The notes under the pieces were generated by a model, which worked only from the letters and a program-made list of their open reading frames with translations, ran no database searches and was not told where the DNA came from. DNA of 43,483 nucleotides from an uncultured Anaerolineales bacterium (GTDB taxonomy: Bacteria > Chloroflexota > Anaerolineae > Anaerolineales > Villigracilaceae): NCBI GenBank assembly GCA_949319575.1, contig CASGHD010000070.1, positions 1-43,483 on the forward strand, read 5' to 3'. The stretch's first letter is position 1. Each line of letters opens with the position of its first letter. Of this stretch, positions 6,369-38,536 are shown piece after piece. The position numbers and the translations under genes were made by a program.

Positions 6369-6393
6369 TAGGGCGAGTCTTAGACTTGTCCTA
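6369..6393. repeat. Palindromic hairpin TAGGGCGAGTCT-T-AGACTTGTCCTA
   Basis: 12-nt arms around a single central T, all positions pairing if G-U is allowed. Confidence 0.8.
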
Positions 6394-6400
6394 TAAAATC

Positions 6401-6553
6401 GTAACTACTCAGCCTGGGAACATGTCGCTGCGGGGCGCTCTTGGTTTTGCCGAAGCAGTCCCCCAACGCCGGGAGATTGCTTCGTCGGGACCCCGAAAAA
6501 TATCGGTGCAGGCGAGCAAGAGCCTCCTCGCAACGACATGCCTGAGTAGTCAC
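6401..6553. mobile_element. MITE-like element, copy 1 (GTAACTACTCAG ... CTGAGTAGTCAC)
   Basis: Terminal inverted repeats; perfect 8-bp direct repeats ATAAAATC at 6393-6400 and 6554-6561; highly similar to copies at 26052 and 31896. Confidence 0.88.
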
Positions 6554-6563
6554 ATAAAATCAG

Positions 6564-25925: not shown

Positions 25926-26051
25926 GGGGAAGGCAGTAAGTCACCCACGAATTCTTGAACGACTTTTTATGGTGAGTGAATAACCGATGTTACGCGATTG
26001 AAATTGATTCGGTACTCGTATTGCGGCATTTTGCTCTTTTCCAAAATAATC

Positions 26052-26206
26052 GTAACTACTCAGCCTCGGGACATGTCGCTGCGAGGCGCTCTTGGTTTTG
26101 CCGAAGCAGTCTCCCAATACCGGGAGATTGCTTCGTCGGGACCCCGAAAAAACATCGGGACAGGCGAGCAAGGGCACTCCTCGCAACGACATGCCTGAGC
26201 AGTTAC
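26052..26206. mobile_element. MITE-like element, copy 2 (GTAACTACTCAG ... CTGAGCAGTTAC)
   Basis: Nearly identical to copy 3; 11/12 matching terminal inverted repeats; flanks AAATAATC and GTTTATTG do not match. Confidence 0.82.
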
Positions 26207-26315
26207 GTTTATTGTTCGGTTTAATGGTTAATCCGCAGCATGTCGCTCTTGCGCAAGGGCAATGTGAACGGCGAGACGCAGAGGCGGTGAGAACACCCTT
26301 TTTTCGTGAAGGCTG

Positions 26316-31862: not shown

Positions 31863-31895
31863 TTTAAGAGCGTGAGTGCGAATGATAAATTATTC

Positions 31896-32050
31896 GTAAC
31901 TACTCAGCCTCGGAATATGTCGCTGCGAGGCGCTCTTGGTTTTGCCGAAGCAGTCTCCCAATACCGGGAGATTGCTACGTCGGGACCCCGAAAAAACATC
32001 GGGGCAGGCGAGCAAGAGCCCTCCTCGCAACGACATGCCTGAGCAGTTAC
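31896..32050. mobile_element. MITE-like element, copy 3 (GTAACTACTCAG ... CTGAGCAGTTAC)
   Basis: Terminal inverted repeats; perfect 8-bp direct repeats AATTATTC at 31888-31895 and 32051-32058, the latter containing the stop codon of the neighbouring minus-strand CDS. Confidence 0.9.
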
Positions 32051-32052
32051 AA

Positions 32053-32703
32053 TTATTCAACCTTATTTTGCGATGTTTTAATCAATTGAACAAATTGTTC
32101 ACCCGTAATTTTATTGTAGAAAAGCGCCAGCGTACTAAATATGAGGATTATCAATCCAACTGCCACACTAGCCACTGCAATAAAATTATTGGGAAATAAA
32201 TATGCCGTGCCCACAATAAGGGTAAGAACCACAAAAGTGACAGATAGTAAGTTTTTGGAAAGCCTTGTAAACTCATTTGTAAAACCAATTGTTTCTACTG
32301 CTTCCTTACGCTCCTCGTTAAGCCTATTTCCGATGTTTTCCACTTTCTCTTTCAGAACAACCAGTCGCTCGCTCTTAAACCACACATCTTTTGCTCGACC
32401 AGTCATAAGGGCAGCTCGAACAGCATCCCCGTTGTTGGAGCTAGTCGTCGCAATGCAAGGAATTCCAGTCTTATTTAGACTGAACATAGCAGACAAACCC
32501 GAGTCGTCATTGATTTTTGTTTCGTCAAGTTTAATGTCTACTAAGGCGATTTCAATTTTTATCCCCTTGTTGTCAATAACCTTATTGACTTCAGAAAGGG
32601 TTTTAGCCTTCAAAATTTGAAAATCTGAACCTAGCCCATCTTCCATGGTTTCTAGCCAATCTTTGTCGTCATCAACAATTAAAGCAATAGGCTTTTCTGG
32701 CAT
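32053..32703 (-). CDS. Receiver-domain protein with coiled-coil linker and two C-terminal TM helices
   Basis: ALIVDDDKDW, IALVDIKLDE, CIATTSS, VWFKSE receiver motifs; hydrophobic helices LLSVTFVVLTLIVGTAYLF and FIAVASVAVGLIILIFSTLALF. Confidence 0.8.
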   Translation of the reverse strand: MPEKPIALIVDDDKDWLETMEDGLGSDFQILKAKTLSEVNKVIDNKGIKIEIALVDIKLDETKINDDSGLSAMFSLNKTGIPCIATTSSNNGDAVRAALMTGRAKDVWFKSERLVVLKEKVENIGNRLNEERKEAVETIGFTNEFTRLSKNLLSVTFVVLTLIVGTAYLFPNNFIAVASVAVGLIILIFSTLALFYNKITGEQFVQLIKTSQNKVE

Positions 32704-36912: not shown

Positions 36913-38382
36913 TTAGTTTTCGTTACTGCTTTTCCCATCCACCATGCACCAAATTCTTCCATCCCGCGCCAGCAGCGCGTCCGCTTTGGCGGGACCCCAC
37001 GAGCCGATATCGTATGCGGCGAGGGGTTGCGTGGTGGATTTCCACGCTTCGAGGATCGGGTCAATGAGTCCCCAGGCGGTTTCCACTTCGTCGGCGCGCG
37101 TAAATAAAGAGGCGTCGCCTGTTATCGTGTCGAGCAAGAGGCGTTCGTACGCTTCGGGGATCGCCGTCTTGCCGAACGAGTCCGCGTAGTGGAATTCCAT
37201 GTCCACTGGGCGTGTCTCCGAGATCGTATCGGGGACCTTCGCCTCGAAGCGCCAATGCACGCCCTCGTCGGGTTGCAAAAAGAGGACGAGCATGTTCGGG
37301 TTTAGTCCGCCGTCCGATGCGTTGAACAATAAGTGCGGCGGCTCTTTGAACTGGATGGTGACCTGACTCGTTTTCTCTTTCAGCGCTTTGCCCGACCGCA
37401 GATAAAACGGGACTCCCTGCCAGCGCCAATTGTCCACTTGCAGTTTGAGCGCGGCAAACGTGGGAGTTTTGGAATCGGGGCTGACGCCGTCCTCTTGCAA
37501 GTATCCCTTGTATTGCGCGCGGACAGCGTTCTGCGCGACCGCCTCCGAGTTCATCGGGCGGATCGAACACAGCACTTTGACCTTTTCATTTCGCAGGGCG
37601 TTCGCTTCGAACGACGAGGGCGGTTCCATTGCCACCAACGACATCAATTGCAAAAGATGATTCTGGAACATGTCGCGCATCACGCCGACGCCGTCGTAAA
37701 AACGTCCGCGATGCTCCACGCCGACTTTTTCCGCGACGGTGATCTCCACATGGTCAATGTAGTTGCGATTCCATAACGGCTCGAAGATCGTGTTTGCAAA
37801 GCGCGTGACCAAAATATTTTGCACGGTCTCTTTGCCGAGGTAATGGTCAATGCGATAGATCTGATTTTCGTTCAGCGTTTTGTGAATTTGCTCATTGAGT
37901 TTGCGCGCCGAGTCGAGGTCTATGCCGAACGGTTTTTCGATGACGACGCGCCGCCAGCCGTCGCGTTCCGTCATTTGTTCGGTGAGACCGAGCAGGTCAA
38001 TGATACTGGGAAAAATTCCCGGCGGCGTTGCCATGTAGTACACGCGGTTTGCCGTGCCGCCTTCCCATTTGCTCATGGCTTCGCTGAGTTTTTCGAAATC
38101 GCCGAGTTGGTCGTATTTGCCTTGCAGGTAAAAAAGATGCGGCGCGAAATCTGCCCACTGTTCTGGTTTGACCTCGCGCGAAGCAAATTTTTTGATACCC
38201 TCTTCGAGATGCGCTCGAAATGCTTCGTCGGTGTATGCAGTCCCGCCGTAGCCGATGATGCGGAATTGTTTGGGCATCCGTCCCTTGCGGAAAACATTAA
38301 ACAGGGATGGGATGAGTTTGCGCTGAGTCAAATCGCCCGACGCGCCGAAGATGATGATGGAAGTTGGAAGTCCGTTTGCCAT
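36913..38382 (-). CDS. zwf: Glucose-6-phosphate 1-dehydrogenase
   Basis: IIFGASGDLTQRKLIPSLFNV, RIDHYLGKETVQNILVTRFAN; start reset to MANGLPTS at 38382. Confidence 0.95.
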   Translation of the reverse strand: MANGLPTSIIIFGASGDLTQRKLIPSLFNVFRKGRMPKQFRIIGYGGTAYTDEAFRAHLEEGIKKFASREVKPEQWADFAPHLFYLQGKYDQLGDFEKLSEAMSKWEGGTANRVYYMATPPGIFPSIIDLLGLTEQMTERDGWRRVVIEKPFGIDLDSARKLNEQIHKTLNENQIYRIDHYLGKETVQNILVTRFANTIFEPLWNRNYIDHVEITVAEKVGVEHRGRFYDGVGVMRDMFQNHLLQLMSLVAMEPPSSFEANALRNEKVKVLCSIRPMNSEAVAQNAVRAQYKGYLQEDGVSPDSKTPTFAALKLQVDNWRWQGVPFYLRSGKALKEKTSQVTIQFKEPPHLLFNASDGGLNPNMLVLFLQPDEGVHWRFEAKVPDTISETRPVDMEFHYADSFGKTAIPEAYERLLLDTITGDASLFTRADEVETAWGLIDPILEAWKSTTQPLAAYDIGSWGPAKADALLARDGRIWCMVDGKSSNEN

Positions 38383-38393
38383 AGTGGTTTCCC

Positions 38394-38536
38394 ATGTCGT
38401 TGCGAAGTCGTCCTGAGCGGAGCGTAGCGAAGTCGAAGGATCGCCCGAAGCAATCTCATGCAACATGCAAAAGATTGTTCACATGCAAACAGGAGATTGC
38501 TTCGTCGCTCCCGCTGGTCGCTCCTCGCAACGACAT
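38394..38536. repeat. Long palindromic element related to the MITE core, between gnd stop and zwf start
   Basis: ATGTCGTTGCGA...CTCGCAACGACAT ends, inner GAAGCAATCTC/GAGATTGCTTC, same words as internal part of copies 1-3 but without GTAAC ends. Confidence 0.82.

What the first reader, a model, noticed from the sequence alone, without database searches (positions are those of the whole stretch)
6393..6561. Non-autonomous element with GTAA ends and perfect 8-bp target duplication (copy 1), IS66-like signature
Seen: GTAACTACTCAG...CTGAGTAGTCAC bounds 153 bp flanked on both sides by ATAAAATC. Three copies occur in the window and none carries a transposase. Established knowledge (from memory): IS66-family ends typically start GTAA and generate 8-bp duplications. 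Inference: this is a MITE mobilised by an IS66-type transposase elsewhere in the genome.
Basis: partly seen in the sequence, partly recalled or inferred. Interest (0 to 1): 0.72.

Follow-up and report, generated by a model that had tools for sequence, protein, structure and literature searches.

The report
IS66-mobilised MITE carrying a hairpin
This is one of at least 57 copies, in this bacterium's genome, of a small gene-less jumping DNA piece that borrows the ends recognised by IS66-type jumping genes; it is an ordinary kind of element, with the twist that only the tips resemble IS66 and the middle is an unrelated hairpin repeat.

Summary
Observation and interpretation both hold. The 153-bp unit at 6401-6553 has inverted ends GTAACTACTCAG/GTGACTACTCAG and a perfect 8-bp duplication. 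The source genome has 57 complete copies with both flanks; 39 have exact 8-bp duplications (0.75 expected by shuffling), and three empty sites carry the target once. So this is a MITE family probably mobilised in trans by an IS66/ISBst12 transposase. The core is a palindromic REP-like repeat that also occurs alone. A second, unrelated core uses the same ends in this genome, and order-level relatives carry other hairpin cores, some terminator-like, between the same ends. No intact IS66 was found in the host assembly, so the family may be stranded there. Any function of the cores is untested.

The parts
6393..6400 (.). left target-site duplication ATAAAATC
6401..6553 (+). MITE copy 1 (153 bp)
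6401..6412 (+). terminal inverted repeat GTAACTACTCAG (IS66/ISBst12-type end)
6423..6538 (+). palindromic REP-like core TGTCG(C/T)TGCGRGG...CCTCGCAACGACA; the same kind of repeat also occurs without the GTAAC ends elsewhere in the genome
   Evidence: folds with z = -4.5
6542..6553 (-). right terminal inverted repeat (GTGACTACTCAG read on the minus strand)
6554..6561 (.). right target-site duplication ATAAAATC
26052..26206 (+). MITE copy 2 (155 bp); flanks AAATAATC/GTTTATTG, no target-site duplication
31896..32050 (+). MITE copy 3 (155 bp); exact duplication AATTATTC at 31888-31895 and 32051-32058

Best explanation
The unit is a MITE, a non-autonomous element mobilised in trans by an IS66-family transposase of the ISBst12 (single-ORF) group. 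The transposase recognises the 12-15 bp ends (GTAACTRCTCAG), moves everything between them and inserts it at AT-rich sites with an 8-bp stagger that becomes the target duplication. The passenger between the ends is not IS66 sequence: in the main family it is a palindromic REP-like repeat, presumably captured between two IS66 ends and then amplified. Shown here: the ends, duplications, empty sites, matching IS66 elements in relatives and an IS66 relic in the host. Inferred: the transposase's identity and recognition in trans, the capture step, and that activity in this host has ceased or depends on an IS66 missing from the assembly.
For: 57 complete copies, 39 with exact 8-bp duplications. Symmetric AT-rich target, 73% A+T with RA...TY edges. 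Three empty sites with a single target copy: an uninterrupted second copy of the disrupted sequence in the same genome, 97% identical across the junction, and two same-genus genomes at 88-89%. IS66 elements with the same or nearly the same ends: L086, 1559 bp, GTAACTGCTCAG at both ends, duplication CATTATTT; L091, 1604 bp, GTAACAACTCAG, duplication GATTTTTA; L088, 1636 bp, and L097, 1569 bp, with GTAACTACTCAG at both ends; L095 in the same genus (one end seen). L086, L095 and L097 are assigned to IS66 by Pfam and NCBIfam. Host relic at C50:8678-8909, 85% identical to L096 up to its terminal repeat. ISDge4 (ISBst12 group) has ends GTGACTACTCAGCA and GTAACTGCTCAGCA with 8-bp duplication CCTCGATG in an observed transposition (PMC12898284); GTGACTACTCAG is exactly the right end of window copy 1.
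Against: No intact IS66 transposase is found in the host assembly. Several genomes with many of these ends (G057, G018, G001, G038, G042) also lack a PF03050 hit, and in G040 the IS66 found has a variant end, GTAACCGTTCAG. Similarity to IS66 is confined to about 12-15 bp. About a fifth of the copies (11 of 57) lack a recognisable duplication (two or more mismatches).
Confidence: 0.92

Rival explanations
1. The unit is a REP/REPIN-type palindromic repeat spread by a Y1 (RAYT-like) transposase, and the GTAAC ends are incidental.
For: The core is palindromic, REP-like and also occurs alone, without GTAAC ends, in this genome and its relatives. Six Y1-transposase matches occur in the genome.
Against: Exact 8-bp duplications directly outside the GTAAC ends are not expected for HUH/Y1 transposition (from memory). 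Different cores share the same ends and 8-bp duplications. No copy of the core's exact ends flanks the Y1 genes; one near-match (TGTCATTGCGAGG) lies near one of them. This could still explain how the core itself arose.
Confidence: 0.04
2. The unit is mobilised by another DDE family with 8-bp duplications (for example ISL3, IS256, ISAs1) rather than IS66.
For: Other families also make 8-bp duplications (from memory). No intact IS66 is in the host assembly.
Against: Near-identical ends are found on IS66 elements in the same family and in published ISDge4, and an IS66 relic with such an end is in the host. No element of another family with these ends was met, though other families were not searched systematically.
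Confidence: 0.03
3. The repeat persists because it serves the host (terminator, RNA-stability hairpin, protein-binding site) and transposition is only its history. This is compatible with the best explanation for how it got there.
For: Strong hairpins. A marked intergenic bias: 21% of exact-duplication copies fall in an open frame of 150 codons or more against 92% of random window positions.
Against: Intergenic bias is also what selection against gene disruption, plus an AT-rich target preference, would give. There is no expression data, and nothing in Rfam matched.
Confidence: 0.1

Closest known systems
IS66 family, ISBst12 group (for example ISDge4 of Deinococcus geothermalis, PMC12898284)
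   Same: 12-bp ends nearly identical (GTGACTACTCAG / GTAACTGCTCAG); 8-bp target duplication
   Different: The MITE has no transposase gene and no internal IS66 sequence
Bacterial MITEs such as MITEPsy1 (PMC3189936) and MITECca01 (PMC9769881)
   Same: Short, transposase-less, multi-copy, ends shared with a known IS family
   Different: Those papers link their MITEs to ISPsy2 (MITEPsy1, listed as 'IS5?') and ISCca4 (IS982); this one is linked to IS66 and carries a palindromic repeat that also exists independently
REP / REPIN and CGTC-tagged palindromic repeats (PMC3733652, PMC3116915)
   Same: The core is a high-copy palindrome forming strong hairpins
   Different: Here it is enclosed by IS66 ends and flanked by 8-bp duplications; assignment of the core to a described REP family was not tested

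Membership tests
MITE (general) | short, terminal inverted repeats, no transposase, multi-copy | tested here: met
   132-235 bp, 57 complete copies, no coding capacity for a transposase
MITE (general) | target-site duplication of constant length; empty sites | tested here: met
   39 of 57 exact 8-bp, 46 with at most one mismatch; three empty sites
IS66-derived MITE (ISBst12 group) | ends shared with IS66-family elements | tested here: met
   L086, L088, L091, L095, L097; ISDge4
IS66-derived MITE (ISBst12 group) | 8-bp duplication, as in IS66 | tested here: met
   IS66 copies L086, L091, L102, L103 also have exact 8-bp duplications
IS66-derived MITE (ISBst12 group) | cognate intact transposase in the same genome (usual but not required) | tested here: inconclusive
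   no PF03050 match in the host, only a decayed 3' remnant; the assembly is 91% complete in 227 contigs, so absence is not proven
IS66-derived MITE (ISBst12 group) | moved in trans by an IS66 transposase | not testable with these tools
   needs a transposition assay
REP/REPIN mobilised by RAYT | repeat flanks a Y1 transposase gene; no target duplication | tested here: not met
   no copy of the core's exact ends near any of the six Y1 matches, one near-match near L154's gene; 8-bp duplications present

The most novel reading that the evidence does not exclude
ISBst12-type IS66 ends act as a minimal, 12-15 bp packaging signal that has repeatedly and independently captured unrelated hairpin sequences in this order of bacteria: the REP-like and the 164/234-235-bp cores in the host, terminator-like hairpins in G055 and in one unit of G040, and a different hairpin core in G040. 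They spread to high copy number, in some hosts as insertable transcription terminators.
Probability: 0.5. Interest if true: 0.55.

Novelty: new member of a known kind. Interest (0 to 1): 0.4.

Why it matters
MITEs are common. What is useful here is a well-supported case (duplications, empty sites, near-identical copies) that ties a high-copy family to the little-studied ISBst12 group and suggests that about 15 bp at an end can suffice for IS66-type transposition. The recurring use of the same ends by unrelated hairpins suggests a route by which palindromic repeats become mobile, a question left open for some REP families in PMC3733652.

Tried and rejected
The PF03050 search of the host found nothing, but a search with an alignment of relatives' IS66 proteins found a relic. 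Descent of the core from IS66 by internal deletion was rejected: beyond about 15 bp at the ends no similarity was seen. RAYT mobilisation was rejected for the whole unit. Rfam gave no match to the MITEs. A literature search for pieces of the core sequence gave only hits that looked like chance. No paper in the held library described an IS66 MITE with such a core, which is weak evidence because subscription journals and ISfinder are not held.

Full report
Observation. The sequence reads as described. In the source genome the 12-bp end occurs 91 times exactly against 0 for its reversed control, and 177 times with at most one mismatch against 12. Many contigs start or end inside a copy, so the true copy number exceeds the 57 complete copies with both flanks that I could tabulate. 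Of these, 39 have exact 8-bp duplications and 46 at most one mismatch; random re-pairing of flanks gives 0.75 and 1.6 on average (one search lists a 58th row, a chance pairing of 126 bp in L068, left out). None of the 39 extends to nine bases. Targets are AT-rich (73%) with a symmetric preference for RA at the left and TY at the right. Copies 1 and 3 in the window have perfect duplications, copy 2 has none.

Transposition is shown by empty sites. The copy at C89:15603-15779 interrupts a sequence whose second copy, at C27:8921-9313, is intact: 97% identical without a gap across the junction, with AATCGCCA once. The copy at C156:8681-8833 is absent from two same-genus genomes, whose DNA runs through the site with GATTTGTT or GATTTGTA once.

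Which transposase. Of 149 genomes of the family, 50 have IS66 matches. Several fetched elements end like the MITE: L086 (1559 bp, duplication CATTATTT), L088, L091 (one base different, duplication GATTTTTA), L097, and in the same genus L095, a contig that starts at GTAACTACTCAG. The complete ones encode one long ORF of about 500 aa. Of the three proteins scanned (L086, L095, L097) all match DDE_Tnp_IS66, the two full-length ones also zf-IS66 and DUF6444, and NCBIfam names all three IS66 family transposase. One ORF places them with the ISBst12 group, whose member ISDge4 has been seen to transpose with an 8-bp duplication and ends GTGACTACTCAGCA and GTAACTGCTCAGCA (PMC12898284). The host itself has no PF03050 match, but a profile of these proteins finds a broken 3' end of tnpC at about C50:8678-8909 that stops at CGGTGTAGTTAC, 85% identical to L096 over 233 bp including its terminal repeat; a MITE copy starts 26 bp further on. 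The variant end CTGTGTAGTTAC, which L096 has, also occurs on some MITE copies (L005, L128).

Anatomy. One end has 3 bp, the other about 10 bp, between the 12-bp repeat and the core. The core, TGTCGYTGCGAGG...CCTCGCARCGACA, folds strongly (z = -4.5) and exists without the ends at several places in the host (L133-L137, L139, L140) and in relatives (L074, L077, L078). Size classes of 132, 153-156 and 176-181 bp reflect differences inside the core. The 164- and 234-235-bp units (L047, L046, L120, L132) have a different core altogether, with exact duplications in L047 and L120. So the ends are what the units share.

Beyond the genus. The ends are abundant in G055 (331), G040 (128) and G057 (105), with controls of 0-1. 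Units read from G055 (111-117 bp, one of 185) and G040 (110 and 122 bp) have 8-bp duplications in most cases and cores unrelated to the host's by eye. The three folded examples are strong hairpins (z from -6.4 to -14.5). The G055 units and the 110-bp unit of G040 have A and T tracts around the stem, and the scan of L163 reports terminator-like sites on both strands. The link of those families to IS66 rests on the shared ends: PF03050 hits in G055 and G040 do not carry exactly these ends, and G057 has none.

Context. Copies avoid genes: 7 of 34 fall in an open frame of 150 codons or more, against 92% of random window positions. Nearest-neighbour identity has a median of 98%, pointing to fairly recent spread.

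Conclusion. A MITE family moved by an IS66/ISBst12-type transposase is the best reading. It is a new member of a known kind, with a recurrent hairpin-capture theme that deserves a survey.

Noticed in passing
L046 195-429, L132 1795-2029, L120 934-1167, L047 961-1124: A second MITE type in the same genome with the same GTAAC ends but an unrelated core.
   Followed up: partly
L159-L167, L176-L178 (G055) and L172 (G040): High-copy units with the same ends whose cores are near-perfect hairpins flanked by A and T tracts, like bidirectional terminators.
   Followed up: partly
window 38447-38535: A stand-alone degenerate copy of the REP-like core without GTAAC ends, beside the 5' end of the glucose-6-phosphate dehydrogenase-like ORF (36913-38466, minus strand).
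   Followed up: no
L194 (G000:C50:8678-8909): Decayed IS66 3' end with its terminal repeat, 26 bp from a MITE copy.
   Followed up: yes
window 26044-26214: Copy 2 lacks a target duplication; rearrangement after insertion or an assembly join are possible.
   Followed up: no
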